Source: Strigamia acuminata | Taxonomy: Eukaryota; Arthropoda; Chilopoda; Geophilomorpha; Linotaeniidae | Direction of reading: 5' to 3' | Assembly: GCA_949358305.1 (NCBI GenBank) | Contig: OX442319.1 | Span: 1,364,001 to 1,428,000, forward strand | DNA: 64,000 bases | Shown here: one piece after another, positions 13,627 to 46,982 of the stretch | Numbering within the stretch: position 1 is the stretch's first letter | How the letters are laid out: every line of letters starts with the position of its first letter | Translations under genes and position numbers: made by a program | The notes under the pieces: generated by a model | Databases searched by the model: none | The model's input: only the letters and a program-made list of their open reading frames with translations | Told to the model about the DNA's origin: nothing

Positions 13627-14164
13627 TGTAGGTTGGCAGCAGAGGAAAACAACCAAAAATGCTCGAAATCTCGGGCGAAACTGTCGCAAATGCGTCGCAC
13701 GAGTGGTACGCGCGTACGGGCGACGTCGGGGACGAAATGTAAACGTAACGGCCGCGATATTCGCTTATATGCCGTGAGAAATGATGAATGAATGCTTAAA
13801 AGCATAAAATAAGTTTAATCAATACGAAATACTCACATATGAGTTGGAAAATACATGAATAACCATGAGGCGAGAGCCAGGCGCTGGTCGCCGCCATCTT
13901 GGATGTAGGAGTGGTACAGTAACGACACCTGGTGTCGTGAAATGGCGTTATGGAATTGAAAATTCCATAAAGCTTAACAAAAGGTTAGATATAGCATGAT
14001 GCCCCATGCAGAAACACAATAACATAATGTGAATGTTTGGAAATGATATACATAATTGAATATAATAAATATCGGAACAAATAAACGAATATAATGAAAC
14101 AATAGATCGTAATGTGATTCTATATCGCATCGACACACATATAATTTGGTTCCTTAGACCAACA
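13627..14164 (-). repeat. 3' LTR of Copia-A (538 bp)
   Basis: On the plus strand it starts TGTAGG and ends CCAACA. By eye it is identical over its length to 20455-20992. Its outer flank is the TSD copy TTTTG. Confidence 0.95.
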
Positions 14165-14176
14165 ATTCCCCCTTTC
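14165..14176 (-). promoter_or_regulatory. Polypurine tract of Copia-A
   Basis: On the minus strand the sequence reads GAAAGGGGGAAT directly before the 3' LTR. Copia-B has the similar GAAAAGGGGGAA at its own 3' LTR. About 190 bp of 3' untranslated sequence separates it from the pol stop at 14369. Confidence 0.85.
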
Positions 14177-14368
14177 GATGGAGATAGAATCAGGGGAAAA
14201 GAAATACGGTTACTGGAATTACAGTAGATAATAATCGAGAATAAATAATAGAGTCGAATCGCCGAGCCGGGTACTGTTATTGAAAACGCCACGTAGGCCC
14301 GAATATTCCCACAGAAACTTGGCGATCCTCGAAGTCGGGTAAATAACGAAAGAATGTCACGATAAAGT

Positions 14369-17300
14369 CTAAAGTCGGAACACACGGGAGATCAACGACT
14401 GAAGACGCTCAGAACTGAGCCACTTAGTGAATATGTCCGCGACGTTGTGCTCGCTGGACACTTTTCGGAGATCAAAACAGCCTGCCGTAAACCATTCCCT
14501 GAGCCAGTGATACTTGACGCGGATATGCTTCGTCTTCGAGTTTTCCACGTCGTTGGATGTGAATTGTATGCTGGCTAAGGCATCGGAGTAAATAATCGGA
14601 CGAGACAGGCGGTTCAAAATCGGGAATTCGGTGAAGATGTTATCGAGCCAAAAGGTTTCCTTCACGCATTCAACTAGGGCGAGAAATTCGGCTTCCATAG
14701 TTGAACACGCGACAGTCGATTGTTTTCGACACGACCAGCCTATTGGCACATTCCCGATATATGTAATGTAGCCACCGAAACTTAAAGATGTCGCCAAATC
14801 GCTAGCCCACGATGCATCCGTATACGCCCATAATTGGCTTGACGCACAATTCGAAAGTTCGATACGGTAATCAATAGTATTCGCTACGTACTGGAGAACT
14901 TGAAGGAGCGCACGGATGTGGGTGTTATCGTAGCAAGTGTTGAATTGCGAAAGCGATATGACGGAAAATAAGATGTCGGGGCGAGTTCGTGATGCCAGAA
15001 AAAGCAGTGACCCGATAAGCGAGCGGTAAGGAAAATCGATCAGGTCTTCTGTCGATGCTCGAACTAATGTGGTTCCGGGAGTCACTGGCACTTTCACGAG
15101 TCGATTTGTCGATGTACCGTACTTCGTTGGGAAATGTAAGTGCGTCCCATCTCGCGGATAAACTCGACTCCTAGCAGTTTGGTGATTGGGCCGAGGTTGA
15201 CTATGTCGAATTTCGAAGTAATAAGTCGAATAATCCGGTCCAAAACACTGTCGGCTGCGTAGAAAAGTACAATATCATCAACGTAGACTAGCATAACTGC
15301 ACAATTGCCATAGATGTAAACGCAATTGCACGCAGGCATTTTTCGGAATCCGAGGGCTCGAAGTGCTTCGTCCAGTTTCAAATACCATTGTCTACCGGAC
15401 TGGTGAAGTCCGTAAAGCGATTTCACGAGTAACCAAACGTTGTCGGGGTGATTACAGGTGGCACCTGCCGGGATGCGCATGTAGACCTTGTGCTCGAGGT
15501 CCCCGTACAGGTATGCACATTTGACGTCGAGGTGTGCATCTTTCCATCCTCGTAGCACTACCAAAAGGCAAAAGAATAGACGAATGAGGACGAAATTTAC
15601 TACTGGACTAAAGACTTCGTCGTAATCGATTCCGAAGGTTTGGCGAAAGCCTTGGGCGACAAGTCGAGCACGATATCGAGTAATCTTGCCGGTCGCGTCT
15701 GATTTGAGTTTAAAAATCCATTTACAACCCAGGATTGTCGTATCGGGCGGCTTCGGCACTTCGACATAAATCTCCCGCTCTTTGAAAGTTCCCAACTCTT
15801 CATCGATGGCTTCACGCCATTTTGGAGCGTCGTCGAATTTGGGAATTTCCGCATACGATGACGGTTCGGTGCGACAGAGATGAGCGGCATGTCGAGCTGG
15901 AGGAATCAATGGTAGTGTATGCTCCATATTGCCGAAAAAGAATAACTCGGGGTCGTAAGGGAGATTGTTCATAACACAGAACTCTTCGACGTCTCTGCGA
16001 GATCGAAGTCGGAGGCCGGGTTCCGGGAAGTAATAGACGTCGATGTCTATCGAACCTGGCTGTTGATCTTTGCGTAGATGTTCTTCGCGAATCCATTTAC
16101 GAAATACTGTGTTTCCGCCGACATAACGCCAATAGAATGATGTCTTGCCGGCAGAAGGAGCTGCAACATGTGTTGCGCCCGGAGGCAATGGAGACATTTG
16201 CCCCTGATCGAAGATTGGCATTGTGTGCTGTAAAATGTTCGGGCCGGCTTTCCTACGTAACGTGATGAAACGATTTGGGGAAGTCGGTGGTGAAAGGCCG
16301 GGGGAACTGGCATTGGACGTTTCCGGTGACGCATGTGCAGACTGATTCGGTCGCAATTCTTCCGCGTCCGGTTGAACCGCAAATTCCTCGATCTGCTCGG
16401 CGTCATCGTCGGTGTCCTGCCCTTCAGCTATCTGTTCGTGTTCCTCATTAGTAATCGGATGCGATACGGAACCACGAGCTGGAGTCGGCAATGTTGATGC
16501 ACAAAGTTCTAATAACTGTCGTTCCGGCGTTGATGGGGGTGGAATATGAACAATCGGTATCGGTGGCGTCTTTGATTTGGAAGCCGACTTGGATACAGAT
16601 TTGTCTTCGGATATCGAATGTTCGTCATCTGACGCTGGTTTGATCGACCAGTTTGCATATTCGATGGTGTCGTTGAATGACACTCTTTGTTGCTCGTTGT
16701 TGGGTTCATAGAAGGATTCATTGTTGCCATTTGGTACGCTTCGTAAGGATTTGCGATACGATTGATGTTCGTCTATGCGGACATGTGCAGACTCCGTGAC
16801 CTTGTTATCAATGGGATTCCAAATTCTATAGCCACGAGTTGCAACCGCGTACCCAACGAGATATCCTTCCCATGCGCGTGGATCAAGCTTTTTACGGCCC
16901 GGCGCTGTGTAGTGGACCCAACATTTGGATCCGATCTTTCGTAAGTGTCGGAGAGATAACGCTCGCTCACGCCAAAGTACATAGGGGACTTGATTCTTCA
17001 AACGTGAGTGAGGGCTTCTGTTCTTGATATAAGCGAAAGTCACTGCAAGCTCTGCCCATAAACCGGCCGGAAGTTTGGTTTCTTCATGAATTGCGCGGAT
17101 GTTGTCTGCCATCGTTCTGTTAATGCGTTCGGCCGTTCCATTCATTTGTGGGCTCGATGGGTTCGTTCGCTGCCCTTGGATCCCTTTGTCTTTCAAATAG
17201 CGCTCGAATTCATTGGACATGAATTCACCGCCACGGTCTGTGCGAATGGCTTTGATTGTTGTATTCGCAACCCGTTCGACTCTCGCGGCGAAGTCCTTAA

Positions 17301-19353
17301 AGCATGCGAAGACTTGGGACTTCTGCGCTAAGGGGGTGATCCAAGCATATCGTGTAGCGTCATCAATGATCGTTAAAACGAAACGAGCTCCACCGAAAGA
17401 TGTTGCAGGAGCCGGCCCCCACACGTCCATATGCAGGAGGTCGAGTGCTTTGGTAGTACTCGGGTGAAGGTCCGGTTTGTGCGAAATCTTGATTGATTTT
17501 GCAAGACGACAGTCGTTGCAAGCGAGTTCTTGTTTTACTTCTCCCGGTTCCATTCCGTATACTTGTTCGTTGTTTGCCAACAGGCGCATCGCATTTGTGT
17601 GCAAATGCCCTAATCTGCTATGCCATAGACCCGTAGCATCCTTTACGGTTGCAGGATTAGCAATTGCCTTCTTTGGTGACTTAGAAGGATTGCTCGGAGG
17701 AGGAGGTATGGCAGGAGGAGTATTAGGTAATGGCGTTGTCGGAATGGATTGGAGAACGTTGGAATAGGATTGGATAGGAGGATCTGGTTGGATAGGCGTG
17801 GATTGGGGAACAGGCAGAGACTGGGTCGGATTGGAAATTTGATTCTGAATTTGCTTCGGAATCGGCGGCATTTCTATTCGAAAATCCGTGTTGCCTCCTT
17901 GTCTCGATTTCCCCTTCTTCGGTTTCGGAATGTTCTCAAAATCCACTTCTGTGGTGACATAAGTCAGCGCCGGCGTTTGCTGAATGGGTGTCGGAATTAT
18001 CGTCGACACTGGGGTCGAAATCACCGCAGACACAGAAGGAGTCGAACATAAACCGTCCACATAATATAATCCAGCCTTCTCCTTCGCCCGAAGAATAGAA
18101 CTTCGAATGTCCGATTGATAGATGTTAACTTCACCGTTGTAGAAATGTATGTGATGACGTGTTTTATCGATTTTGGAAACCGAAATCAAATTGGCCTCGA
18201 AATTCGGTGCAAAAAGTACGTTCGTCAAATTCACAATGCAATTGCAGTCATCTATCCTCGTGAGCAGTCGGACATTTCCTTTTCCAGTCACTTTGGACTT
18301 GCCTTGTCCGAGTTCGATGTCGAATGGCACGATGTCAACAAAATCCGTAAACCAAGCTCGAACATAGGAGACGTGGTCCGTCGCGCCACAGTCGACAATC
18401 CATTCATTGGATTGCATGAAATGTGCAACTGGGCGCGCTGGGGCTTGTGGGGCACTGGCGAAGAATGTCCCTTCTCGTGTTGGACGAGAACAACCACGCG
18501 GACGCGTATCGTCGGGCTTGGGCGCGGCGTTTTTGTTGCGCTTCTTGCTCTTGCTTCGAGAGCGTTGGAAAGAAGCCGATGCCGGGGGTTGATTGTGATC
18601 CTCCCGTCTTGGATGGGGACACTTGTTCGCGTAGTGGCCCATCTCATTGCAGTTGAAACATTTAATTTCCGATAACGGTCGACGAGGACGAGAATTCTTT
18701 CGGGATTGTTGGCCTTTTACAGACGAATGCACAGAAGATGAGTGTACATTGTGCAATCCCATCGGTTTCAACCGTAGATATTCGGAAATCAATTGTTCGG
18801 CAACTTTAGTCGGAGTGAACTCTGGATCGGGCCAGTGATATATGGCGAACGTTGCCTGTGCGTATTCGGGCGGTAGTCGGTTGAGGTATTGATATGCATG
18901 GTGATCATCTGTCGTGACTTCTTTGATGTCAGCCAATTGACGAACAAAATGATCAACTCGATTAATGAAATCCTGCATTTCCTCATTAGGTTCTAGATGC
19001 AACGTCAAGAATTCCGATCGTAATGCTGCCCGTCGTGCCCGCGAACTGGGCGCGTACGCTTTAGCCAGGACGTCCCATGCCTGTTTGGGAGTATCACAAT
19101 TGTCCAGGGCTGAACGTTTCGGTTCGCTGACATACATGTAGATGTGTCCGAGAGCTTTGTCCTTTTTGACCATGTAACGTTCTTTTTCCTTCTCAGTTAA
19201 TGTCAAGAGATGGTCGGCCTCCTTCTCCTCCGTTACATGCCTCCAAAGGCCCTCGGATTTCAAAAGCATCCGCATCGCCCTCTGCCAGGGCTCGTAATTC
19301 CCGACAGAGAGGATGGGAATTCTGCTGACCGTCGTTTCCGTTGTCTTTTGCAT
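14369..19353 (-). pseudogene. gag-pol: Gag-pol polyprotein of Copia-A, broken by a short deletion/frameshift
   Basis: The ATG at 19353 is the first in frame (protein begins MQKTTETT). In order the frame encodes Gag with a CCHC zinc knuckle (CFNCNEMGHYANKC), protease with D-C-G-A-T, integrase with HHCC finger and D, D(35)E residues, an MBD-like module (about 15930-16135, DVYYFPEPGLRLRS), and RT with YVDD. The first frame stops at 15094. RNase H with the rest of pol continues in another frame at 15097-14369. Compared with Copia-B, about 25 bp are missing just before the junction, which shifts the frame and removes part of the segment linking RT and RNase H. This copy is unlikely to make a complete Pol by itself. 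Copia-B is a related but distinct family. Confidence 0.9.
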
Positions 19354-20434
19354 CGTTTCGAAGACTCGGCGCACCACGCAAAATACACAAACTCAGGAAA
19401 TGGTATAACGGCGATCGAAGCACTTCACTAAGGCACAAAGAAGTGTGGACGAATGTTTGTTCACACAAAATCGTTGCACTTATCACAAATTCACCTCCCT
19501 CGTGGTTCAAAGCGGATATCACCCGAAGGGGAACCAATGCTACAATTGGTTGAGAACCTAAAGCAAGTGTCCCCCTAGCTTCCTTTATAGCCACCTGGGG
19601 CTGCGGGAGTGCTAGGTGGCGCAGGGCTCAGCCTTGCTTTAGAATACAAACACCGCTTGGACAGACTTGTCCGTAGGGCAGTGTCGATACTAAAGGATCC
19701 CTTCCAAAATACCCACTTAAAACTAACAATTTAAATACGACAAGAAGGAGAAATAGATGAATCTCCCGTGGAAGGTCACACGGGCTCGCGGCAAAGCACG
19801 AGACGGGTTTTCTCGAAAAACCCGCTAGAAAAGCGCAATTCGGCTTCGAAAAACCGAATTCTTCTCGAATTAACGAGGCTCTTCGTGAAAAATACACAGA
19901 TCGTCGAAATAATTCAAAAATCGGCGATACTACATGCACTCCGGGGTGCATGAAGCGAGAATCGTCTCGTTTCTCGTTGTAAAACGTCTCGTCGACGTTG
20001 TCGCAAAATAAAATTGTCGAAATCCTGAAAAATATGAAAATTCGCCTCGAAATTTGCGAGACCGCACAATTTCGGACGAAATTAGCTGGAGAATCGTGTA
20101 GTGTGCAGTACAAACTGCCTGGGAACGTCGTTGACACGTTGTCGACGTCCAAAACGCGAAAATCCAGCTTGAAAAGTGACGAAAAATCTGAAAATATAAA
20201 TTCGCACAAAAATTCGCGAAACTCGCGGAATTTTCGGCGATAAATGGTGAAAACAATTGGTGTACAACGTCGTCGTGACGTTGTATAAATCCAGGGTTGA
20301 TTCGGCGGCGTGAAACGTCCCGGAAATAGCGAAAAACGTCGCGAACACCTGAAAATACAAAAATTGCCGCGAAAATCGCGAAAAACGCGAATTTTCTGCA
20401 GCGGTTAGTGGAAAATAAGCGTGCAAAGGATGAC
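19354..20434 (-). other. 5' leader of Copia-A
   Basis: About 1.08 kb between the primer-binding site and the gag ATG. Several long open frames exist on the minus strand but they look incidental: no ATG-led frame resembles a known protein and Copia-B does not conserve them. The part nearest gag (19532-19642) is conserved as an RNA structure and is listed separately. Confidence 0.65.
19532..19642 (-). ncRNA. Conserved structured RNA element in Copia-A leader
   Basis: Read on the minus strand, an outer stem CTAAAGCAAG/CTTGCTTTAG (19633-19642 with 19558-19567) encloses a hairpin with stem GCCACCT/AGGTGGC. A second hairpin AACCAAT-TGTAGC-ATTGGTT (19532-19551) follows. The same elements in the same order occur in Copia-B at 36903-37014, with base changes that preserve pairing. 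It ends about 180 nt before the gag ATG. Possible roles are packaging, translation initiation or dimerisation; none is shown. Confidence 0.75.
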
Positions 20435-20452
20435 AACCATCCTCTGCTACCA
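20435..20452 (-). promoter_or_regulatory. Primer-binding site of Copia-A (initiator tRNA-Met)
   Basis: The minus strand reads TGGTAGCAGAGGATGGTT two bases inside the 5' LTR. This is the complement of the 3' end of animal initiator tRNA-Met including its CCA tail, as far as I recall that sequence. It supports an animal host. Confidence 0.9.
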
Positions 20453-20454
20453 AT

Positions 20455-20992
20455 TGTAGGTTGGCAGCAGAGGAAAACAACCAAAAATGCTCGAAATCTC
20501 GGGCGAAACTGTCGCAAATGCGTCGCACGAGTGGTACGCGCGTACGGGCGACGTCGGGGACGAAATGTAAACGTAACGGCCGCGATATTCGCTTATATGC
20601 CGTGAGAAATGATGAATGAATGCTTAAAAGCATAAAATAAGTTTAATCAATACGAAATACTCACATATGAGTTGGAAAATACATGAATAACCATGAGGCG
20701 AGAGCCAGGCGCTGGTCGCCGCCATCTTGGATGTAGGAGTGGTACAGTAACGACACCTGGTGTCGTGAAATGGCGTTATGGAATTGAAAATTCCATAAAG
20801 CTTAACAAAAGGTTAGATATAGCATGATGCCCCATGCAGAAACACAATAACATAATGTGAATGTTTGGAAATGATATACATAATTGAATATAATAAATAT
20901 CGGAACAAATAAACGAATATAATGAAACAATAGATCGTAATGTGATTCTATATCGCATCGACACACATATAATTTGGTTCCTTAGACCAACA
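20455..20992 (-). repeat. 5' LTR of Copia-A (538 bp)
   Basis: This is the partner of 13627-14164 with no difference seen by eye. Its outer flank is the second TTTTG target-site copy, after which the hairpin array resumes in phase. Confidence 0.95.
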
Positions 20993-23218: not shown

Positions 23219-24075
23219 CTATCTCGTATTCGACTCGAAAACGAGTCGAATACGATTTCGCGTTGAGAAAGAAAGGGCAAAATTCGTACTCGACTCGAAA
23301 ACGAGTCGAATACGATTTTGCGTTGAAGAAGGGCAAAATTCGTACTCGACTCGAAAACGAGTCGAATACGATTTCGCGTTGAAGAAGGGCAAAATTCGCA
23401 TTCGACTCGAAAACGAGTCGAATACGATTTCGCGTTGAAGAAGGGCAAAATTCGCATTCGACTCGAAAACGAGTCGAATACGATTTTGCGTTGAGAAAGG
23501 GCAAAATTCGCATTCGACTCGAAAACGAGTCGAATACGATTTCGCGTTGAAGAAGGGCAAAATTCGCATTCGACTCGAAAACGAGTCGAATACGATTTCG
23601 CGTTGAAGAAGGGCAAAATTCGCATTCGACTCGAAAACGAGTCGAATACGATTTCGCGTTGAAGAAGGGCAAAATTCGCATTCGACTCGAAAACGAGTCG
23701 AATACGATTTCGCGTTGAAGAAGGGCAAAATTCGCATTCGACTCGAAAACGAGTCGAATACGATTTCGCATTGAAGAAGGGCAAAATTCGCATTCGACTC
23801 GAAAACGAGTCGAATACGATTTCGCGTTGAAGAAGGGCAAAATTCGTACTCGACTCGAAAACGAGTCGAATACGATTTCGCGTTGAAGAAGGGCAAAATT
23901 CGCATTCGACTCGAAAACGAGTCGAATACGATTTCGCGTTGAAGAAGGGCAAAATTCGTATTCGATTCGAAAGCGAATCGAATACAATTTTGCGTTGAAA
24001 AAGGACAAAAATCGTATTCGATTCGCTTTCGAATCGAATACGAGTTTTGTCCTTTTTCAACGCTTGGGAAAAGGA
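23219..24075 (-). repeat. 56-bp hairpin-unit array, right arm I
   Basis: Reverse-complement counterpart of the left array, with 14 units at 56-bp spacing from 23275 to 24003 (spacer GGGCAAAATTCG, last one GGACAAAAATCG). The first spacer next to the centre has four extra bases (GAAA). The left arm has 12 units, so the arms are not perfect mirror images. Confidence 0.9.
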
Positions 24076-34902: not shown

Positions 34903-35645
34903 GCATTCGAGTCCTTTTCCCAAGCGTTGAAAAAGGACAAAACTCGTATTCGATTCGAAAGCGAATCGAATACGATTTTTGTCCTTTTTCAACGCAAAAT
35001 TGTATTCGATTCGCTTTCGAATCGAATACGAATTTTGCCCTTCTTCAACGCGAAATCGTATTCGACTCGTTTTCGAGTCGAATGCGAATTTTGCCCTTCT
35101 TCAACGCGAAATCGTATTCGACTCGTTTTCGAGTCGAGTACGAATTTTGCCCTTCTTCAACGCGAAATCGTATTCGACTCGTTTTCGAGTCGAATGCGAA
35201 TTTTGCCCTTCTTCAATGCGAAATCGTATTCGACTCGTTTTCGAGTCGAATGCGAATTTTGCCCTTCTTCAACGCGAAATCGTATTCGACTCGTTTTCGA
35301 GTCGAATGCGAATTTTGCCCTTCTTCAACGCGAAATCGTATTCGACTCGTTTTCGAGTCGAATGCGAATTTTGCCCTTCTTCAACGCGAAATCGTATTCG
35401 ACTCGTTTTCGAGTCGAATGCGAATTTTGCCCTTCTTCAACGCGAAATCGTATTCGACTCGTTTTCGAGTCGAATGCGAATTTTGCCCTTTCTCAACGCA
35501 AAATCGTATTCGACTCGTTTTCGAGTCGAATGCGAATTTTGCCCTTCTTCAACGCGAAATCGTATTCGACTCGTTTTCGAGTCGAGTACGAATTTTGCCC
35601 TTCTTCAACGCGAAATCGTATTCGATTCGCTTTCGAATCGTATAC
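34903..35645 (+). repeat. 56-bp hairpin-unit array, left arm II (uninterrupted)
   Basis: Twelve units at 56-bp spacing (34981, 35037 and so on to 35597), the same number as left arm I once Copia-A is removed. It shows what the pre-insertion array looked like. Confidence 0.92.
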
Positions 35646-35897
35646 GAGATGGTCGATTTTTGTTTCCCGGACTTTGATTTGTATTCGAGTTGTTACGAGT
35701 TCGTATTTTGATCGTATTCGTATTCGAATCGAATTCGAATCGTATTCGAATCGAATACGAATCGAATTCGAGTCGTATTCGAGATGGTCGATGATTTCCA
35801 CTCGCTCGTATACGCGTTGTATACGAGCTCGTATTTTGATCGTAATCGTAAACGAATCGTTTACAAGTCGTATACAAGTCGTATACGACGTGTATAC
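35646..35897. repeat. Centre of giant element II, part left of Copia-B
   Basis: Matches 21486-21737 of copy I and ends in GACGTGTATAC, where Copia-B is inserted. The uninterrupted target is visible in copy I near 21740. Confidence 0.88.
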
Positions 35898-36398
35898 TGT
35901 AGATCAAGAGATCATTTATTATTTCACAATTACAGAGTTTTTCCTTTATTTATTTATAATGTATATGTTTTGTTTTCCCCACTTATGTATCTAGTTTTGA
36001 TACATATCGTATTTTAAGCATTGAGCACCATGCGCCCTTTATCATTTTCTTTAATTTTCACTTAATGTGAAATATTGTCGCTTAGTAAAGTGAGCACCAG
36101 ATGGTGTCTTATCGTTTTTGCTTTTGTTATCCAACATGGCGTCTCCCGCACAGGACGGTCGCCTTTATGTATTCTCTTCATTTATAGCAGTATGTAAGTG
36201 TATATTTTCATTAAACCGTTTTATTTAGGCTTTTTATTAAGCTTTTGTTCTTTGTTTGCCACGTTTGATAAGTGGCAAACACACACGTTTTCACGAGGCC
36301 GTGCGGAGAAGCGCGCCCGTGCCACGTCGTCATTATTACGCTCATTTCGGCCATTAATAGCTTCCACTGGCCCGTTTTATTTTTTTCACCACGCTACA
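35898..36398 (+). repeat. 5' LTR of Copia-B (501 bp)
   Basis: Begins TGTAGATC and ends CGCTACA. It is identical by eye to 42145-42645. Contains ATTAAACCG/TTTTATTT AT-rich stretches; no promoter element is certain. Confidence 0.95.
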
Positions 36399-36400
36399 AG

Positions 36401-36411
36401 TGGTAGCAGAG
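36401..36411 (+). promoter_or_regulatory. Primer-binding site of Copia-B
   Basis: TGGTAGCAGAG begins two bases after the LTR. The first 11 bases match the initiator tRNA-Met site of Copia-A and the match then ends (GCTGGGG follows), so priming uses a shorter duplex. Confidence 0.75.
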
Positions 36412-37138
36412 AGCTGGGGACGACCCATCGTGTTATTTATTGCTAATTATCGACGCCATTTTCGCGAAATTCGCGAAAATTCGCGCCGAGTTTGTGTATT
36501 TTCAGATTTTCACCCGACGGCCGCCATTTTCGACGATTTTCATCATTTTCAACCGATTTTTCGACGATTTTGGAATTTTCCCACGTGCAGTGCACCTTGT
36601 ACGGCGTGTCGGTACCTGAGTTACACAGATTTTCGACGATTTTTCCAGGATTTACGACGATTTTTGAAGTTTTCGCGACGATTTTCGCGTTCTGATGTAA
36701 ATCGACGAGTTTTGATGCAAACCGACGATTTTCGACGTGATAACTCGCCGTCGTCGCTCATCTCATCTCAACATATCACTAATCATTCTCTCCCTACAGT
36801 AGTCGCAATATACTTTGTTAATTTTAAGATAGGTTTAAGTTTTTGGGGGTCAATTAGATTCGGCTTCACCCTTCGTCCATTCGGGCACGTGAAGCTAGTA
36901 TTCTTGGGCAAGGCTATCCCTGCGCCACCTAACACTCCCGTGGCCCCAGGTGGCTTGCAAAGGACGTTAGGGGGATACTTGCCTAAGGTTTTTAAACCGA
37001 TTGTAGCATCGGTTCCCCATCGTGGTTTCCGCCTTGACAGTGCTCCGATTCTCAGTGCGACGTTTTGTGCTTCGAGACGTCCAGTCTCAGTGCTTCAATC
37101 AAATTTAGTCATTCCCTGTGTCAGTGCTTCTTTTCACG
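36412..37138 (+). other. 5' leader of Copia-B
   Basis: Roughly 0.73 kb with repeated CGACGATTTT words in its first half. A frame stays open from 36400 to 37200 but has no early ATG and no counterpart in Copia-A, so I do not call it a gene. The distal half contains the conserved RNA structure. Confidence 0.6.
36903..37014 (+). ncRNA. Conserved structured RNA element in Copia-B leader
   Basis: The outer stem CTTGGGCAAG/CTTGCCTAAG (36903-36912 with 36978-36987) encloses a hairpin GCCACCT/AGGTGGC (36924-36930 with 36948-36954). A hairpin AACCGAT-TGTAGC-ATCGGTT (36995-37014) follows. The Copia-A counterpart differs in both arms at the same paired positions: in the outer stem U-A, G-U and G-C become A-U, A-U and A-U, and in the second hairpin G-C becomes A-U. 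Loops and single-stranded stretches such as CACTCCCG and TAGGGGGA are well conserved. It ends 124 nt before the gag ATG. Confidence 0.78.
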
Positions 37139-40100
37139 ATGTCCAAGTCTTCAGACGCGTCGGTCGGCAAAATTCCGATTTTGTCAATCGGAAATTATGA
37201 ATCATGGCGCAGATCGATGCGCATGTATTTGAAGTCAGAAGGATTGTGGCATCACGTCACGGAAGACACCGAGGAAGCCGACCTTAAGACATTTAATGAC
37301 AAGGAATTGAAAAAGTACAAGAAAAGAAAGGACCGTGCATTGGGTTTAATTTACTGCCAAGTGAGCGAGGCGAAACGATCCGTCTTAGATCCCTGCAATA
37401 CACCAAAGGAGTCATGGGACGCCCTCGCAAAAGTGTATGCACCATCTTCTCGTGCTCGCAAGGCCGCTATGCGCCGCGAGTTTCTTGGTCTTCATCTCTT
37501 ACCTGGCGAAGAGATGGTAGATTTCATCGGCAGAGTGGACGATCACGTCCGAAAATTGACTGATGTGAAAGAAACAATATCAGATGACCATAAAGCTTAT
37601 CAGTATTTGGACATGTTGCCCAGCGAATATTCCCAAGTTTCTTTTGCAATATATCATTGGCCAGACGACGACTTCAAGCCGATTAAAGTAGCTGACCAAT
37701 TACTTTCGGAATATCTCCGGCTCAAATCCATTTCTTCCCGGGATAATCCGAATTCGTCATCTCAAGCTTTTGCCAATGAACGTCGTGGACGGGACCAATC
37801 GCGCCCTTCACGACCATTAACTCAAATTCAGTGTTATAACTGCGGGGACATGGGCCATTATGCGAATCGCTGTCCACATCCTCCGAATCCAAATAGAATT
37901 GACAAAAATCGCCCAACTGCCACTTTTCAACGCAAATCACGCAGTTCCAGCCGTAAACGCAAGCAGAAGGCAAATCAACAAGATAATTCGAAACCAAGGG
38001 GGAATTCTCAAGTTCGAAGAGAGTCCAACTTCTTTTTGAATGCGCCACCACAAGTTGAGGTCCCAATTGCACACTTCATGCAAAATTCGGAATGGATCGT
38101 CGATTGTGGGGCAACGGACCATGTTTCTCACGTCAAGGCTTGGTTTTCGGATTTTCAACCAGTTACACCTTTTGACATTGAGTTAGGCCAAGGCCATTCA
38201 CAGGTTACTGGAAAAGGAACTGTGCGAATTCAGACCTTTATTGACAATTGCGAATGTGTGGTGAATCTACACGAAGTCTTGTATGCTCCGAACTTCGAGG
38301 CGAACCTCATCTCGGTATCGCGGATAGACAATAATAAACACCACATCCACATATTTAATTCCGAAATAAATGTGTATGAAACCGATATTAGACACAGCGT
38401 CCTCCGCGCGAGACAAAAGGGAGGATTGTATTACGTCGATGGATTGCGTCCGCCCACGACAGTTACTGTGAACAATCCTCAAGTTCAAAATGAGGTTTTG
38501 CCATCTACAAATCCCAAAACTATGGTTACGATTGAGGAAGATTTTCCAAAAATTAAGAAAGCATCCAAGAAGTCGAAGACAAGAGACATTACTGATTTTC
38601 GCATCGAGTTGCCAAATCCAGTGCCTAAAAATCTCCTTCCTCAGACTTTCCATCCTCCTCCCGTACCTACACCTGTCCTTACCAATTCCAACCCCATTGT
38701 CCCGTCCTATGCTACGGCCCTGAATAGCATTCCTCCCAAATCCAATCCAGGCAAGCAGATTAAGCAGAATGGTCAAAAACCAATTGCTACTGCAACGTCA
38801 AAGAAGGACAGTACGGGACTTTGGCACAGCCGGTTAGGGCATTTACACGCCAATGCCATTAGACTTTTGGCCAACAACCCACAAGTTTATGGTTTTACAC
38901 CGGAAGAAGTTCGCCAAGAGCTCGCCTGCAATCATTGCCGAATCGCTAAATCAATTCGAGCGTCGCATAAACCAGATCCACATCCAATTACCACTAAGGC
39001 ATTAGATCTGATGCATATGGATCTTTGGGGGCCAGCACCTGCGACATCATTCGGCGGTGCTCGCTACGTTCTAACAATTATTGACGACGCCACTCGTTAT
39101 ACTTGGATAATTCCCATCGCCCAGAAATCACAAACTTTTCAGTGTTTTAAAGACTTTGTCTCCCGTGTCGAGCGAGTAGCAAATACTCGAATCAAAGCCA
39201 TACGGACTGATCGAGGCGGGGAATTTATTTCCAACGAATTTACCAAATATCTCAACGATTCTGGAATTCAAGCGCAGAGGACTAACCCTGCATCCCCTCA
39301 GATGAATGGAACGGCCGAACGAATAAATAGGACGATGGCCGACCATTTTCGTGCAATTTTGGATGAAACTCAACTTCCTCTTGAGCTTTGGGCCGAGATT
39401 GCCGTCAATTTTGCATACGTCAAGAACAGAAGTCCCCATTCCAGATTGAACAATGAGGTCCCTTACATTCTCTGGCGCCAACGAGCTCTTTCTCTCCGAC
39501 ACCTTCGCAAGATTGGATCTAAATGCTGGGTCCACTACACAGCCCCTGGTAGAAGCAAATTCGAATCACGAGCTTGGGAAGGGTTTCTCGTTGGTTATGC
39601 GACAGGAACCAGAGGATATCGTGTCTGGAACCCCATTGATGATAAAGTAATCGAAACAATTCATGTACAGATTGATGAAAAACAGTCTTTTCGACGATCG
39701 AGTCACAATTCTCGACGACAAACGTCATTGGCTGAAGATCTTAATGCCCAGTCTGTTCCTACGACGACGTCAAGGGTGAATTTTGACGACAACGTTGGTT
39801 ATTCTGATTGGCCAGCCAGAATGTCGGACTCGGAAGACCAGAACACGTCGAGTGATTATGATTCGGACGATTCAACACCCCAAGGTGCCGTGGGAGGTAT
39901 TTCTCCACCGCCTTCTCCACCAGTTCGGGTTCCAACTCCGAAACCGTCTCCTGTTTTGACTCCGACAGTGTCACCTTTTCATACCCCGGACAATTCACCT
40001 CCGGGTTCACCTAATCCTTTCGTAACGGCACGTCGGGGCTCTGGACCAACGCATCGTCCGCCACCAGCGCCGACTGAAACTCACACTGTTGTTCCAACAA

Positions 40101-41935
40101 TCATCCCTACAGCCACTACATCTTATAAATGGCGTTACGTAGGTGGCACCGGTCCTTGTAGCCACTGGAAACGGGAGGAACATCTGAGGAAAGATCAATT
40201 CCCCGGACAAATAAAGATAGATGTGTACTACTTCCCGAAACCAGGCTTACGGCTGCGCTCAAAACCGAACATTCGAGAGTATTGTGATAAAGAGGGCATT
40301 ATCTACGATGATGACCTTTTCTTCTTCGGCAACATGGAACACCAATTGCCTGAGGTTCCTCCAATTCGACCCATTATCCATTTATGCCGCCGTGAACCGT
40401 CCAGTTATTCCGAAGCTGGGAAATTCCCTGATGCACCAAAATGGCGTGAAGCCATCGATGAGGAGCTCGGAACCTTCAAGAAAAGGGAGGTGTATCAGGA
40501 AGTGCCTAAACCGCCAAATACAACAATACTGGGCTGTAAATGGATTTTTAAATTAAAAACGGACGCGACCGGAAAGATCAATCGTTACCGTGCGAGATTA
40601 GTAGCGCAAGGCTTTCGCCAAACCATTGGGATTGACTTCGACGAAGTTTTCAGCCCAGTTGTAAATTTCGTGCTTATCCGTTTCTTCTTTTGCCTCCTCG
40701 TGGTCCTCAAAGGATGGCAAGACACTCACCTCGACATAAAATGCGCCTACTTATATGGAGAGCTTAAACATCGAATTTATATGAGAATTCCTGCAGGCGC
40801 AATGTGTGATGATCCGGAAAATGTTTGGTTGCTCACGAAATCGTTATACGGGTTACACCAGTCCGGTCGTGAATGGTATCAAAAATTGGACGAGACTCTC
40901 AAAGAGTTAGGTTTTCGCAAGATGCCCGCCTGCAACTGTGTCTACGTTTTCGGCAAATCAGCGGTCATGCTCGTCTACGTGGACGATATAGTTCTATTTT
41001 ATTCGTCTAAGAGCATTTTGACCCAAGTACTCCAACTGATCAGCAGTAAATTCGAGATTGTGGACTTGGGACCAATAACCAAACTGCTGGGAGTCGAATT
41101 CGTGCGACATATGGGCCAAACTTTCATGATTCAAAGCGTATTCATCGAGAAACTGTTAAAGAAGTTTGGCATAACGGCAGACAACGTCATTAAAGTGCCT
41201 GTCACACCTGGAACGACTTTAGTCAAGGGACCAAAAGAAAATTTGGCAGATTTCCCATACAGATCGCTGATTGGATCCCTTCTGTTCTTGGCATCTCGAA
41301 CCCGACCGGATATATTATATTCCGTGATTACTCTGTCTCAGTACAACAATTGTTATACCGCGGCACACATCAAAGCATTGCTTCAAGTCCTACGTTACGT
41401 AGCTAACACCGCGAATTATTGTATTGAACTGTCTAACTGCACATCGGGACAACTCTGGGCCTACACGGACGCATCGTGGGCCAGCGATGTGGCTACTTCC
41501 CTGAGTTTTGGTGGATATATTGCGTTCATTGGGAACACACCGATTGGATGGTCATGTAAAAAACAGACCAGCGTCGCAGCTTCGACAATGGAAGCGGAGT
41601 TTGTAGCATTAATGGAGGTCGTCAAAGAGCTTTATTGGCTTGACCACATTTACTCCGAGCTTCCATTGCTCAATCGTGTTTCCAAGCCCATCATATTTTC
41701 GGACGCATTGGCATCCATCCAGTTCTCGACCAATGACGTGGAAAATTCACGCACGAAGTACATCCGTGTGAAGTTCCACTGGCTCAGGGAGTGGCATTCC
41801 GAGGGACGTTTCGAACTGAGGAAAATACCCGGGAGCATAAACGTCTCTGACATATTCACCAAGTGGTTAAGTGCGGACCGGCTTAATCTACTGATTGCGA
41901 ACATTTTTGATTTTCATCGGATACGTCATTCCTAA
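37139..41935 (+). CDS. gag-pol: Gag-pol polyprotein of Copia-B, intact, with MBD-like module
   Basis: The 1598-aa frame starts at the ATG at 37139 (MSKSSDAS); the seven codons before it lack an ATG. Gag has a CCHC knuckle, C232-x2-C235-x4-H240-x4-C245. Protease has D322-C-G-A-T, where many copia proteins have DSG. The integrase has an HHCC finger (H563 to C600) and D628, D691, E727, i.e. D(35)E. Residues about 998-1070 resemble the methyl-CpG-binding domain: HWKREEHLRK, then D1028-V-Y-Y-F-P-x-P-G-x-x-x-R1040-S-K-P, then an FFFG end. RT follows with YVDD at 1280-1283. RNase H begins near TDASWASD (about 1443). The polyprotein would be cut by its own protease. No internal stop or frameshift is seen. 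Confidence 0.96.
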   Translation: MSKSSDASVGKIPILSIGNYESWRRSMRMYLKSEGLWHHVTEDTEEADLKTFNDKELKKYKKRKDRALGLIYCQVSEAKRSVLDPCNTPKESWDALAKVYAPSSRARKAAMRREFLGLHLLPGEEMVDFIGRVDDHVRKLTDVKETISDDHKAYQYLDMLPSEYSQVSFAIYHWPDDDFKPIKVADQLLSEYLRLKSISSRDNPNSSSQAFANERRGRDQSRPSRPLTQIQCYNCGDMGHYANRCPHPPNPNRIDKNRPTATFQRKSRSSSRKRKQKANQQDNSKPRGNSQVRRESNFFLNAPPQVEVPIAHFMQNSEWIVDCGATDHVSHVKAWFSDFQPVTPFDIELGQGHSQVTGKGTVRIQTFIDNCECVVNLHEVLYAPNFEANLISVSRIDNNKHHIHIFNSEINVYETDIRHSVLRARQKGGLYYVDGLRPPTTVTVNNPQVQNEVLPSTNPKTMVTIEEDFPKIKKASKKSKTRDITDFRIELPNPVPKNLLPQTFHPPPVPTPVLTNSNPIVPSYATALNSIPPKSNPGKQIKQNGQKPIATATSKKDSTGLWHSRLGHLHANAIRLLANNPQVYGFTPEEVRQELACNHCRIAKSIRASHKPDPHPITTKALDLMHMDLWGPAPATSFGGARYVLTIIDDATRYTWIIPIAQKSQTFQCFKDFVSRVERVANTRIKAIRTDRGGEFISNEFTKYLNDSGIQAQRTNPASPQMNGTAERINRTMADHFRAILDETQLPLELWAEIAVNFAYVKNRSPHSRLNNEVPYILWRQRALSLRHLRKIGSKCWVHYTAPGRSKFESRAWEGFLVGYATGTRGYRVWNPIDDKVIETIHVQIDEKQSFRRSSHNSRRQTSLAEDLNAQSVPTTTSRVNFDDNVGYSDWPARMSDSEDQNTSSDYDSDDSTPQGAVGGISPPPSPPVRVPTPKPSPVLTPTVSPFHTPDNSPPGSPNPFVTARRGSGPTHRPPPAPTETHTVVPTIIPTATTSYKWRYVGGTGPCSHWKREEHLRKDQFPGQIKIDVYYFPKPGLRLRSKPNIREYCDKEGIIYDDDLFFFGNMEHQLPEVPPIRPIIHLCRREPSSYSEAGKFPDAPKWREAIDEELGTFKKREVYQEVPKPPNTTILGCKWIFKLKTDATGKINRYRARLVAQGFRQTIGIDFDEVFSPVVNFVLIRFFFCLLVVLKGWQDTHLDIKCAYLYGELKHRIYMRIPAGAMCDDPENVWLLTKSLYGLHQSGREWYQKLDETLKELGFRKMPACNCVYVFGKSAVMLVYVDDIVLFYSSKSILTQVLQLISSKFEIVDLGPITKLLGVEFVRHMGQTFMIQSVFIEKLLKKFGITADNVIKVPVTPGTTLVKGPKENLADFPYRSLIGSLLFLASRTRPDILYSVITLSQYNNCYTAAHIKALLQVLRYVANTANYCIELSNCTSGQLWAYTDASWASDVATSLSFGGYIAFIGNTPIGWSCKKQTSVAASTMEAEFVALMEVVKELYWLDHIYSELPLLNRVSKPIIFSDALASIQFSTNDVENSRTKYIRVKFHWLREWHSEGRFELRKIPGSINVSDIFTKWLSADRLNLLIANIFDFHRIRHS

Positions 41936-42130
41936 TTTATTTATCCAGAATTTGAGAATTACTGAGCATTAGATTGGGAATTGTGTTTATAAGTGCCCTA
42001 AAAGTACCCGGCTCGGTAATTCGCTTTCTTTAGTTATAATTATTGTATACGACATTGGAATCATGTCTTTTCCGGGGTTACAGTCTCGACTTTCTTATTT
42101 CATTTGTTATTTGTTCATCCCTGTGATTGT

Positions 42131-42142
42131 GAAAAGGGGGAA
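42131..42142 (+). promoter_or_regulatory. Polypurine tract of Copia-B
   Basis: GAAAAGGGGGAA lies two bases before the TGT of the 3' LTR and about 195 bp after the gag-pol stop. The intervening 3' untranslated stretch shows no other feature. Confidence 0.88.
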
Positions 42143-42144
42143 TT

Positions 42145-42645
42145 TGTAGATCAAGAGATCATTTATTATTTCACAATTACAGAGTTTTTCCTTTATTTAT
42201 TTATAATGTATATGTTTTGTTTTCCCCACTTATGTATCTAGTTTTGATACATATCGTATTTTAAGCATTGAGCACCATGCGCCCTTTATCATTTTCTTTA
42301 ATTTTCACTTAATGTGAAATATTGTCGCTTAGTAAAGTGAGCACCAGATGGTGTCTTATCGTTTTTGCTTTTGTTATCCAACATGGCGTCTCCCGCACAG
42401 GACGGTCGCCTTTATGTATTCTCTTCATTTATAGCAGTATGTAAGTGTATATTTTCATTAAACCGTTTTATTTAGGCTTTTTATTAAGCTTTTGTTCTTT
42501 GTTTGCCACGTTTGATAAGTGGCAAACACACACGTTTTCACGAGGCCGTGCGGAGAAGCGCGCCCGTGCCACGTCGTCATTATTACGCTCATTTCGGCCA
42601 TTAATAGCTTCCACTGGCCCGTTTTATTTTTTTCACCACGCTACA
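42145..42645 (+). repeat. 3' LTR of Copia-B (501 bp)
   Basis: Identical by eye to 35898-36398 and followed by the second TATAC target copy. Confidence 0.95.
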
Positions 42646-44079
42646 TATACACCTCGTATACGAACGAAGTTTGTGAAAACACAATTTCCAAATAAGACGT
42701 ATGTGACTACTATGTGTTTTCATGTCGTAGTAAGTATCCGGTGGATTTTCCAAACTTCGTTCGTATACGAGGTGTATACACGTCGTATACGACTTGTATA
42801 CGACTTGTAAACGATTCGTTTACGATTACGATCAAAATACGAGCTCGTATACAACGCGTATACGAGCGAGTGGAAATCATCGACCATCTCGAATGCGACT
42901 CGAATACGATTCGAATACATCTCGAATACATCTCGAATACGAGTCGTACGAGTCAAAGTCCGGGAACGGGTCATCGACTATCTCGTATTCGAGTTGTTAC
43001 GAGTTCGTATTTTGATCGTATTCGTATTCGAATCGAATTCGAATCGTATTCGAATCGAATACTAATCGAATTCGAGTCGTATTCGAGATGGTCGATGATT
43101 TCCACTCGCTCGTATACGCGTTGTATACGAGCTCGTATTTTGATCGTAATCGTAAACGAATCGTTTACAAGTCGTATACAAGTCGTATACGACGTGTATA
43201 CACCTCGTATACGAACGAAGTTTGTGAAAACACAATTTCCAAATAAGACGTATGTGACTACTATGTGTTTTCATGTCGTAGTAAGTATCCGGTGGATTTT
43301 CCAAACTTCGTTCGTATACGAGGTGTATACACGTCGTATACGACTTGTATACGACTTGTAAACGATTCGTTTACGATTACGATCAAAATACGAGCTCGTA
43401 TACAACGCGTATACGAGCGAGTGGAAATCATCGACCATCTCGAATGCGACTCGAATACGATTCGAATACATCTCGAATACATCTCGAATACGAGTCGTAC
43501 GAGTCAAAGTCCGGGAACGGGTCATCGACTATCTCGTATTCGAGTTGTTACGAGTTCGTATTTTGATCGTATTCGTATTCGAATCGAATTCGAATCGTAT
43601 TCGAATCGAATACTAATCGAATTCGAGTCGTATTCGAGATGGTCGATGATTTCCACTCGCTCGTATACGCGTTGTATACGAGCTCGTATTTTGATCGTAA
43701 TCGTAAACGAATCGTTTACAAGTCGTATACAAGTCGTATACGACGTGTATACACCTCGTATACGAACGAAGTTTGTGAAAACACAATTTCCAAATAAGAC
43801 GTATGTGACTACTATGTGTTTTCATGTCGTAGTAAGTGTCCGGTGGATTTTCCAAACTTTGTTCGTATACGAGGTGTATACACGTCGTATACAACTTGTA
43901 TACGACTTGTAAACGATTCGTTTACGATTACGATCAAAATACGAGCTCGTATACAACGCGTATACGAGCGAGTGGAAATCATCGACCATCTCGAATGCGA
44001 CTCGAATACGATTCGAATACATCTCGAATACATCTCGAATACGAGTCGTACGAGTCAAAGTCCGGGAACGGGTCATCGA
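42646..44079. repeat. Centre of giant element II, part right of Copia-B (551-bp units)
   Basis: Continues the centre with units spaced 551 bp apart (landmarks 42714, 43265, 43816). The copy I units are 573 bp. The 22-bp difference is one fewer GAATTCGAATCGTATTCGAATC-type step in each unit. Palindrome arms and loop are otherwise the same. Confidence 0.87.
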
Positions 44080-44993
44080 CTATCTCGTATTCGACTCGAA
44101 AACGAGTCGAATACGATTTCGCGTTGAGAAAGAAAGGGCAAAATTCGTACTCGACTCGAAAACGAGTCGAATACGATTTTGCGTTGAAGAAGGGCAAAAT
44201 TCGTACTCGACTCGAAAACGAGTCGAATACGATTTCGCGTTGAAGAAGGGCAAAATTCGCATTCGACTCGAAAACGAGTCGAATACGATTTTGCGTTGAG
44301 AAAGGGCAAAATTCGCATTCGACTCGAAAACGAGTCGAATACGATTTCGCGTTGAAGAAGGGCAAAATTCGCATTCGACTCGAAAACGAGTCGAATACGA
44401 TTTTGCGTTGAGAAAGGGCAAAATTCGCATTCGACTCGAAAACGAGTCGAATACGATTTCGCGTTGAAGAAGGGCAAAATTCGCATTCGACTCGAAAACG
44501 AGTCGAATACGATTTCGCGTTGAAGAAGGGCAAAATTCGCATTCGACTCGAAAACGAGTCGAATACGATTTCGCGTTGAAGAAGGGCAAAATTCGCATTC
44601 GACTCGAAAACGAGTCGAATACGATTTCGCGTTGAAGAAGGGCAAAATTCGCATTCGACTCGAAAACGAGTCGAATACGATTTCGCATTGAAGAAGGGCA
44701 AAATTCGCATTCGACTCGAAAACGAGTCGAATACGATTTCGCGTTGAAGAAGGGCAAAATTCGTACTCGACTCGAAAACGAGTCGAATACGATTTCGCGT
44801 TGAAGAAGGGCAAAATTCGCATTCGACTCGAAAACGAGTCGAATACGATTTCGCGTTGAAGAAGGGCAAAATTCGTATTCGATTCGAAAGCGAATCGAAT
44901 ACAATTTTGCGTTGAAAAAGGACAAAAATCGTATTCGATTCGCTTTCGAATCGAATACGAGTTTTGTCCTTTTTCAACGCTTGGGAAAAGGAC
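44080..44993 (-). repeat. 56-bp hairpin-unit array, right arm II
   Basis: Fifteen units at 56-bp spacing from 44136 to 44920, one more than right arm I. It has the same 4-bp-longer first spacer as right arm I. Confidence 0.9.
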
Positions 44994-46982
44994 TCGAATG
45001 CGCCTCCACGTTGCAATGCGCATTTGTGTAAACGATGATGGAATCCCCTGCTTAAATACTGGCTATCGCGTCACGTAACAGCAACGTGCCACGTCACGTA
45101 ATTGCAACGTGCCGCGCTATGCCACACAATGTGCCGCCGCGATAGGCCATTGAACCCGAATGTGTGTGATGCGAAACGCGCGAGTACGCGCGCGGAGAAC
45201 GCGCGGCAATGCTAGCAACAGGAGCGCAACTGCCCAAGAAATTGCTCAACAATAAAAGGCACGTGGAAGCACGTGCCTGAAACAATAGGCACTTCAAATA
45301 AAGTTATTGTTAAAAAACGGGCTTGAAAACCAACAATTACACAATAATTAAGGGGCAAGAAATGAACTTTGCTGCAATGCAAAGTTCTCAAAATACAGAG
45401 AAATGAAAGTTACACTTGTATAAAGAATTGACAATGTTTGAAACCAATAAAAACTACAAAAACACACTTGTAAAAAACCCAAAACAACCCCCAGAATGAA
45501 TTATTTGACTCAAATTAACCCTAAAACAGTCTTGGAGGTCGTGCAGACGACAGAGTCGGATCGGAAGGTTGCTAAAACCTGACGCCAAAACTAGCAATGG
45601 GACAGCTAGTTAGAAAACAGCTTTTTCATCAATCATGAACGCTGAAAACCTCACCCAGGGGTAGAAAATGATGGAGAGAACGTTTTCGCCATCTAAAACG
45701 GTCTAAAACGGGTCTAAAATGCCTAAACCGGCGCCTGGAACGTGGCGCAGTTGTTGGGTCAAATATTGTCAAAAATCAGTGGAAATTTGTCAAATACTGG
45801 CAAAAATCTGCTGAAATTTGTCAAAAATTGCCAAATTTTGGCGCAAGTTACGTGAGGTTTGCGCGCATCCAACTATGACGAAAAATCCATGCGTGTGCAC
45901 GCGCGATTTACTGGCGCGTTGGAAGCGTTAAAATAAATTTTTCCAATATCTAACACAATTTGCACCGAATTATGGCAATTTTTGACAAATTTACATGGAT
46001 TTTTGCCAGTATTTGACAAATTTCCACGGATTTTTGACAATATTTGACAAATTCCAGACAAATTTCAGACAAATTTCAATTAATTTTAGAAATTTTATGA
46101 GAAATTTCAGCAAATGTTTGAGGATTGAGGAAATCTTCTGAAATTTGTCAAATATAGGCAAAAATCTTCTGAAATTTGTCAAATACAGGCAAAAATCTGC
46201 TGAAATTTGTCAAAAATTGCCCAAATTCCGTGCAAGTTTTGCAAGTTTTGCGCGCATCAAATCGTATGCGCGCCTATACTATTGCACGAGCGCATTGACG
46301 CGTGATGAACACCGACCACGTTTACGAAGTGAATTCGAGCTACAAAAGTATCGAGTCGCCATTCTATGATGGAAAAAAAAAATTAAGTGTAAACAAACAA
46401 AATAAAAACTTTAATATACAAGAAACGTACAATTCCACTCAACTTTGTTTCAAATTTTATTTATTGGATCATTGAAAATAAACAGTAGTGTTGTGCACTG
46501 TACGCTTAAGTGTATACCGGCGATGCGTTGTTTTGTGGTGGGGATTTGCCTCGATAATTGATCTTTTCTCTTTGTTTGCAATATTTTTTTGGCCTTTTTT
46601 GTTGATTTTTCGGTTTGAAATTGTTTTTTTCCGGTGTAATTTAAGTGGTGGAAGGTTGTTGGCGTGTGTTGAGGGTAATTTTGGCGGTTTTTGGGTCGGG
46701 ATTAGTGTTTTCTGCGATTTTTTATCGTTATTTGGGGTAACGCATGCGAATCGCCGTCGATGCGTCGACCGTAGCAAGTGTGGTTGAAGTGATTTCGTTC
46801 ATTCGTTATTTTAATGAAAATTAGGTATTTATTGTGACCACACGAGCACGTAGCAAGTGCGCGCGCAAGTTAAATGTGTAGAGGCCTGTGAGAAAATAAA
46901 ACGTGCGTGGAAGCGGCGTAAATATTCTTTGGTGACTGCCATGGGTTTGTGCTTTGTCGTGGGCGCGATATGTCTGCGATAT
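44994..46982. repeat. Right flank of giant element II
   Basis: Near-exact copy of 24076-26065 at a constant offset of 20917. A visible difference is one A/G change near 45967. It ends at the MITE target duplication. Confidence 0.82.
45051..45114 (-). promoter_or_regulatory. Candidate inward-facing promoter, right arm II
   Basis: Fourth copy of the paired ACGTGACG-type repeats plus TATTTAAG (45051-45058 on the minus strand), pointing into the right array. Confidence 0.45.

What the first reader, a model, noticed from the sequence alone, without database searches (positions are those of the whole stretch)
40130..40340. Methyl-CpG-binding-like module inside a Ty1/copia polyprotein (Copia-B)
Between integrase and RT, residues about 998-1070 read like an MBD/TAM domain. 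HWKREEHLRK matches the WKREE..RK strand of MBD2/3-type domains, and DVYYFPKPGLRLRSKP matches the DVYYxSPxGKKxRSKP core. The Asp, Tyr and Arg at the DNA-contacting positions are kept (D1028, Y1030, R1040), and an LFFFGN end stands where LFDFRTG is usual. Chromodomains on gypsy integrases guide integration to heterochromatin; an MBD on a copia integrase would be an analogous targeting device that reads CpG methylation. I know of no described copia element with this, but I cannot search.
Basis: partly seen in the sequence, partly recalled or inferred. Interest (0 to 1): 0.92.

Follow-up and report, generated by a model that had tools for sequence, protein, structure and literature searches.

The report
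Copia retrotransposon carrying a methyl-CpG-binding domain
A jumping gene in a centipede genome carries a borrowed domain of the kind that reads DNA methylation marks, probably to choose where it lands; this kind of element was published in 2019, so this is a further member in another species, with one puzzling variant.

Summary
Window 40130-40340 encodes a real MBD: Pfam E 9e-5; MBD/TAM proteins as the only confident PDB matches; MBD/TAM as the best fold matches. It lies between the integrase SH3 barrel and RT of an unbroken Ty1/copia frame with identical LTRs and a 5-bp TSD. The window holds a second such element. The genome fits Strigamia acuminata and gives at least 149 MBD hits, mostly in copia-sized frames. 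[quoted passage not shown] not held). Added here: one RT clade with spider elements; flanks CpG-richer than random sites or one gypsy family; crowding at chromosome ends, unlike the best RVT_2 hits without an MBD hit nearby. One S. acuminata clade has Val, Ile or Trp at the 5mC-contact Tyr, yet its flanks are CpG-rich too. Best reading: an integrase-borne CpG reader that biases integration; methyl preference is untested here. Novelty: new member of a known kind.

The parts
40130..40340 (+). MBD (methyl-CpG-binding) domain of Copia-B; Pfam core 40166-40297
37109..41935 (+). Single unbroken copia polyprotein frame of Copia-B (stop to stop; first ATG 37139)
37217..37729 (+). Gag (PF14223, E 1.1e-27)
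38996..39298 (+). Integrase core (PF00665, E 2e-12)
39482..39688 (+). Integrase SH3-like barrel (PF25597, E 9.6e-23)
40487..41206 (+). Copia-type reverse transcriptase (PF07727, E 1e-59)
35898..36398 (+). 5' LTR of Copia-B, 501 bp, identical to the 3' LTR
42145..42645 (+). 3' LTR of Copia-B
36399..36417 (+). Primer-binding-site region with TGGTAGCAGAG (tRNA-iMet-like by recall)
42133..42144 (+). Polypurine tract
35893..35897 (+). Target-site duplication TATAC (partner 42646-42650); matching empty site at 21741-21745 (left flank 100%, right flank 96% identical there)
13627..20992 (-). Second MBD-copia element, Copia-A: LTRs 13627-14164 and 20455-20992 (538 bp, 100% identical), TSD TTTTG; empty site at 35145-35149. 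Its frame is broken (ORFs 15094-19392 and 14369-15274)
15919..16140 (-). MBD domain of Copia-A (PF01429 18.1 bits, E 0.0021, below cut-off; 62% identical to the B domain)
34944..35647 (.). CpG-dense 56-bp tandem repeat array, part of the satellite block in which the elements sit (others 13415-13626, 20992-21495, 23224-24043, 44085-44960)

Best explanation
Copia-B is a young member of the arthropod MBD-carrying Ty1/copia lineage in the centipede Strigamia acuminata. Shown here: a bona fide MBD sits in the linker between the integrase SH3 barrel and RT, kept across an RT clade while the linker before it changes faster. Inferred: the MBD is made as part of the integrase C-terminal tail, binds CpG-dense (in vivo perhaps methylated) DNA and tethers the pre-integration complex there, so that new copies land in CpG-rich satellite and repeat blocks. 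This is the role of the integrase chromodomain of chromoviruses or the Ty5 targeting motif (recalled).
For: Identity. Architecture: SH3-MBD-RVT_2 order in 9 of 9 S. acuminata pieces scanned, 7 of 9 over the MBD cut-off. One clade: the 39 MBD rows of the tree all lie in one 47-row RT clade, SH-aLRT 99. Conservation: the MBD is better conserved than the linker in 6 of 6 pairs, as well as RT or better in 2 of 6. Insertion: 54 MBD-copia flanks hold 7.4 CpG/100 bp against 4.4 at 20 control sites, p 3.5e-4; first 140 bp 7.8 against 3.7 for 9 flanks of one gypsy family, p 0.006. Within 10% of a chromosome end: 63 of 121 MBD hits against 16 of 143 RVT_2 hits; 5 of 10 off-Y B copies of >=99% identity, p 0.005. 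Host: methylase (PF00145) matches in 5 loci; in S. maritima 0.758 of 719 annotated TEs fall in the highly methylated group (PMC7343188 section 7). Prior work by title: de Mendoza et al. 2019.
Against: No methylation data for S. acuminata. CpG o/e is 1.46 in the window and 1.16 on average at 20 control sites, not the depletion expected of long germline methylation. In one clade the 5mC-contact Tyr is Val, Ile or Trp. Gypsy hits, which have no MBD, are also end-biased (40 of 116 within 10%; MBD against gypsy p 0.011) and at least as frequent on the Y (20 of 150 against 12 of 149), so part of the chromosome pattern may be retention in heterochromatin. In 4 of 6 pairs the MBD is less conserved than RT. 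Flanks share satellites and are not independent; CpG and GC rise together.
Confidence: 0.8

Rival explanations
1. The MBD is real but acts elsewhere in the life cycle, for example in meeting or escaping host silencing complexes or in LTR regulation. The insertion pattern would then be retention: copies in gene-poor, CpG-rich, low-recombination regions escape purging.
For: Gypsy hits without an MBD are also end- and Y-enriched (40 of 116 within 10% of an end, 20 of 150 on the Y). B-type DNA hits are strongly Y-enriched, 14 of 40, as retention on a poorly recombining chromosome would give.
Against: B copies of >=99% identity already show the end bias, 5 of 10 off the Y. CpG density at flanks exceeds that of one gypsy family, 9 flanks. 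The best RVT_2 hits are not end-biased, 16 of 143.
Confidence: 0.2
2. In part of the clade the MBD has become a methylation-independent CpG or general DNA binder, because the Tyr that contacts 5mC is replaced.
For: Val, Ile or Trp at the Tyr site in 36 of 56 parsed locus ids, 33 of 52 distinct copies once repeated fetches are removed; the four representatives fall in one RT clade; CpG-rich flanks (fam1 7.6, fam2 6.3, fam3 8.1 CpG/100 bp against 4.4); CpG not depleted in the genome.
Against: Copia-A/B, L009, L012, L043 and 31 of 32 parsed public elements keep Tyr. No binding data: the substituted residues may still permit 5mC preference.
Confidence: 0.35
3. Chance resemblance of a charged linker to an MBD, or a different small fold.
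For: Within the whole ORF the B domain scores below Pfam's cut-off (18.0 against 21 bits); no Foldseek row at E<=0.001.
Against: conservation in diverged families.
Confidence: 0.01

Closest known systems
MBD-carrying Copia family of arthropods (de Mendoza, Pflueger and Lister 2019, Genome Res 29:1277-1286; PMC6673714 not held; title seen as a reference, content recalled)
   Same: Retrotransposon family of an arthropod with a captured MBD; by recall a Copia, studied in the centipede S. maritima and a spider, with young copies in CpG-dense regions, as found here in S. acuminata
   Different: Another species with a chromosome-level assembly; the A/B families with one extra residue in the first loop; a Tyr-less clade; the chromosome-end contrast. 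Whether any of these is in the paper could not be checked
Vertebrate MBD2, MBD3, MBD4, MeCP2 domains (PF01429)
   Same: Fold; W-x-R...R...D-V-Y...R-S core; both Arg fingers, Asp and Tyr in B
   Different: Carried by a retroelement; one-residue longer first loop in A/B; hydrophobic residue instead of Tyr in fam1, fam2, fam3 and L041
Chromodomain on gypsy (chromovirus) integrases; Ty5 targeting motif (recalled)
   Same: Works-like analogue: chromatin-reading module on the integrase tail
   Different: Unrelated domain and mark; no sequence relation claimed
Copia and DIRS elements with DNA methyltransferases (de Mendoza et al. 2018, as cited in passages of PMC12344493)
   Same: Retroelement that carries methylation machinery
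   Different: Writer, not reader

Membership tests
MBD domain family (PF01429) | Profile match over the curated cut-off | tested here: met
   B domain as 70- and 80-aa pieces 22.5 and 22.1 bits against 21, but 20.5 and 18.0 in longer pieces; 19 of 19 aligned members match at E<=0.01; seven other S. acuminata copies 39.9-46.9 bits
MBD domain family (PF01429) | MBD fold | tested here: met
   AF2 model pLDDT 78.6; first 37 Foldseek rows and first 36 VIA rows are MBD/TAM
MBD domain family (PF01429) | mCpG-contact residues R, D, Y, R (positions recalled) | tested here: met
   All four kept in Copia-A and B; not met at Tyr in the V/I/W clade
MBD domain family (PF01429) | Preferential binding of methylated CpG | not testable with these tools
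   Needs a binding assay
Ty1/copia LTR retrotransposon | Gag and integrase before an RVT_2-type RT in one frame, LTRs, short TSD | tested here: met
   Gag, zinc knuckle, Pol_BBD, integrase, SH3, RVT_2 E 1e-59; 501-bp LTRs, TG..CA, TSD TATAC. Protease and RNase H gave no Pfam match of their own; placed by recalled motifs only
Arthropod MBD-Copia family (2019) | MBD between integrase and RT in a copia element of an arthropod (recalled) | tested here: met
   host S. acuminata by assembly size and chromosome lengths
Arthropod MBD-Copia family (2019) | Same RT clade as other arthropod MBD-copias | tested here: met
   one clade with Araneus, Stegodyphus and Trichonephila proteins; no protein named as S. 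maritima was among the 120 listed, so the published elements themselves were not placed

The most novel reading that the evidence does not exclude
A large MBD-copia clade of S. acuminata has replaced the 5mC-contact tyrosine (Val, Ile or Trp) while the domain stays conserved and the copies stay in CpG-rich, end-biased places. The captured reader would have been retuned from methyl-CpG to CpG density itself, freeing targeting from the host's methylation state.
Probability: 0.25. Interest if true: 0.6.

Novelty: new member of a known kind. Interest (0 to 1): 0.38.

Why it matters
A mobile element that carries a methylation-reading domain suggests how parasites can use the epigenome to choose a landing place. 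That idea is in print. What this genome adds is a chromosome-level species with young copies, other copia elements as internal controls, and natural variants at the 5mC-contact residue, so that the question 'methylation or CpG density?' becomes directly testable.

Tried and rejected
Chance match or other small fold: rejected. Undescribed domain capture: rejected once the 2019 paper turned up as a reference; none of the first five paper searches listed it, but one search listed the citing papers that led to it. A protein search with residues 960-1110 alone found nothing; a wider region of another copy did. rRNA in flanks: 0 Rfam matches in 20 loci. dN/dS: dS undefined or over 1.5 in 16 of 18 comparisons; only fam1 against fam2 is usable, MBD 0.09 and linker 0.35. 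Two of 25 seeds of my second MBD model (P0017, P0020) were cut at the wrong place; those proteins still match at the right place. L039/L059: only a 35-bp remnant of the 5' LTR; L041/L060: no LTR pair. Flank L138 dropped, LTR end not found; 3' flanks of copies c and e not placed on an LTR end. The hit at C3:20309085 was left out of the 150 MBD hits as a host BAZ2-like gene, by recalled features. Only 7 of the other 149 hits were confirmed as copia by Pfam. That the 150 RVT_2 control hits lack an MBD rests on no listed MBD hit within 2.5 kb, a capped list, not on reading them. Length of C10 taken from the paper.

Full report
What is there. Window 37109-41935 (+) is one open frame of 1608 aa with Pfam matches to copia Gag, zinc knuckle, Pol beta-barrel, GAG-pre-integrase, integrase core, SH3-like integrase barrel and RVT_2 reverse transcriptase in Ty1/copia order. 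Protease and RNase H gave no Pfam match of their own. The frame lies between two identical 501-bp LTRs (35898-36398, 42145-42645) with TG..CA ends, a purine tract and a 5-bp target-site duplication TATAC.

Not a single oddity. PF01429 searched in the window's own genome scored 150 of 1092 first-look candidates, all over the cut-off, 130 of them in open frames over 1000 aa. One of the 150 looks like a host BAZ2 gene. Pieces of nine copies, including the window's second element, all show SH3-MBD-RVT_2; seven exceed the MBD cut-off, E 2e-12 to 3e-10, and two (L055, Copia-A) do not. The B domain is thus a divergent member of a group with much clearer MBDs. Eleven copies of the 501-base stretch around the B domain, the window's included, are 99-100% identical, so B has moved recently.

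Which organism. G000 has 237,517,015 bases in 157 contigs. The centipede Strigamia acuminata assembly qcStrAcum1.1 has 237.5 Mb in 158 scaffolds, and its chromosome lengths 66.99, 37.79, 19.35, 16.99, 16.15, 14.72, 12.25, 9.84, X 9.63, Y 10.34 Mb match contigs C1, C3, C4, C5, C6, C8, C9, C11, C12, C13 (PMC10556566, passages; contig lengths). The window is then on chromosome 6. Methylase (PF00145) matches fall in five loci (11 matches). In the sister species S. maritima 0.758 of 719 annotated TEs are in the highly methylated class (PMC7343188, section 7 read).

Already published. [quoted passage not shown] also passages and the listing). The paper is not held. From recall, its abstract reports arthropod Copia elements with a host-derived MBD, binding of CpG-dense methylated regions in S. 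maritima, accumulation of young copies in CpG-dense regions, and gene-body bias in a spider. The present finding is that kind of element in a congener. A search for 'CopiaMBD' and three variants found no paper in this library.

Distribution and origin. A protein search with L046 residues 760-1330 gave 1291 hits, 120 listed; 14 of the 120 carry a precomputed PF01429. My own model finds 35 of 120 at E<1e-8 and six weaker ones. Named sources with the domain are spiders: Araneus ventricosus, Stegodyphus mimosarum and Trichonephila clavipes. In an RT tree of 118 rows (109 of the 120 public proteins and nine S. acuminata copies) the 39 MBD rows, six weak ones and two unlabelled ones form one clade of 47, SH-aLRT 99; the MBD label as I set it needs four changes (quick method, midpoint root). 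One capture with later erosion fits best: five of the six weak rows form, with one unlabelled row, a subclade whose MBD lacks core residues. In six pairs of copies the MBD is always better conserved than the linker before it; it equals or exceeds RT in two and is below RT in four (for example B against L055: 78, 50 and 76% for MBD, linker, RT; B against A: 64, 32, 74%). dS is saturated in most comparisons; the one usable MBD value, fam1 against fam2, is dN/dS 0.09, linker 0.35.

Insertion sites. Both window elements sit in duplicated blocks of CpG-dense satellite, and each block shows the other element's empty site with the 5-bp overlap expected of a TSD (Copia-B site 21741-21745, Copia-A site 35145-35149). 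For 54 MBD-copia insertions (fam1 21, fam2 17, fam3 4, B 11, A 1; L138 dropped) up to 600 bp of flank hold 7.4 CpG/100 bp, GC 0.46, o/e 1.38, against 4.4, 0.38 and 1.16 at 20 sites taken at round coordinates (p 3.5e-4, 9e-5, 0.014). Nine flanks of one gypsy family (eight of the 40 other matches and the window's own) have 3.7 over 140 bp against 7.8 for MBD-copia (p 0.006). The excess is roughly flat from 0 to 560 bp, so it marks regions, not a target motif. On autosomes and X, 63 of 121 MBD hits lie within 10% of a chromosome end against 16 of 143 of the best RVT_2 hits (none within 2.5 kb of a listed MBD hit) and 40 of 116 gypsy RNase H hits; median relative distance 0.092, 0.287 and 0.129 (p 8e-15 and 0.011). 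On the Y are 12 of 149, 4 of 150 and 20 of 150. These are top-150 lists of 1092, 2633 and 3447 candidates, not censuses, and flanks sharing satellites are not independent.

The odd part. The Tyr that contacts 5mC (Y1030 here) is kept in A, B, L009, L012, L043 and in 31 of 32 parsed public elements (35 examined, 3 not parsed; one Phe). In fam1, fam2, fam3 and L041, one RT clade, it is Val, Val, Trp and Ile: 36 of 56 parsed locus ids, or 33 of 52 distinct copies by my count. The alignment with MBD2 is ungapped there. These loci were picked by score, not at random; by score class the clade seems to supply most of the 149 hits. Its flanks are CpG-rich (fam1 7.6, fam2 6.3, fam3 8.1). By recall, a Tyr-to-Phe change is what blunts methyl selectivity in MBD3. 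CpG is not depleted in this genome. Either these residues still serve, or targeting no longer needs methylation.

Mechanism. Most likely the MBD rides on the integrase tail and holds the intasome on CpG-dense, repeat-rich chromatin. Shown: domain identity, position, conservation, CpG-dense flanks and terminal location of copies. Inferred: attachment to mature integrase, methyl preference, causation of the bias. The main rival is retention of copies in heterochromatin; gypsy elements without an MBD are end-biased too, which counts against reading the chromosome pattern alone as targeting.

Check against the calls. 

Noticed in passing
window about 13027-24436 and 34550-45353: A large inverted satellite block (56-bp CpG-dense arrays as inverted arms, 504 nt at 99%, around a 551/573-bp repeat) is present twice; each copy received a different MBD-copia element, giving reciprocal empty sites.
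   Followed up: partly
window 7354-10398: 1014-aa open frame without a Pfam match at E<=0.01, present elsewhere too: the flanks of a Copia-B copy on C11 match it at 95-97%.
   Followed up: partly
window 14369-19392 (-): Copia-A has identical LTRs but a broken frame; described only.
   Followed up: no
P0006, P0007, P0008, P0012, P0015: A subclade of public MBD-copia relatives whose MBD is eroded while the RT clade is kept; might mark hosts that lost CpG methylation.
   Followed up: no
genome contig C13 (Y chromosome): 14 of 40 B-type DNA hits lie on the Y, which is 4.4% of the genome.
   Followed up: partly
L050 (C3:20304500-20313500): Probable host BAZ2-like gene with a TAM exon, the one hit among the 150 scored MBD hits that I took as not a transposon (recalled features).
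   Followed up: no
genome C1:30.37, C1:28.74, C1:11.84, C3:32.74, C3:35.92 Mb: Five loci with DNA methylase (PF00145) matches; several DNMT copies are possible, sequences not read.
   Followed up: no
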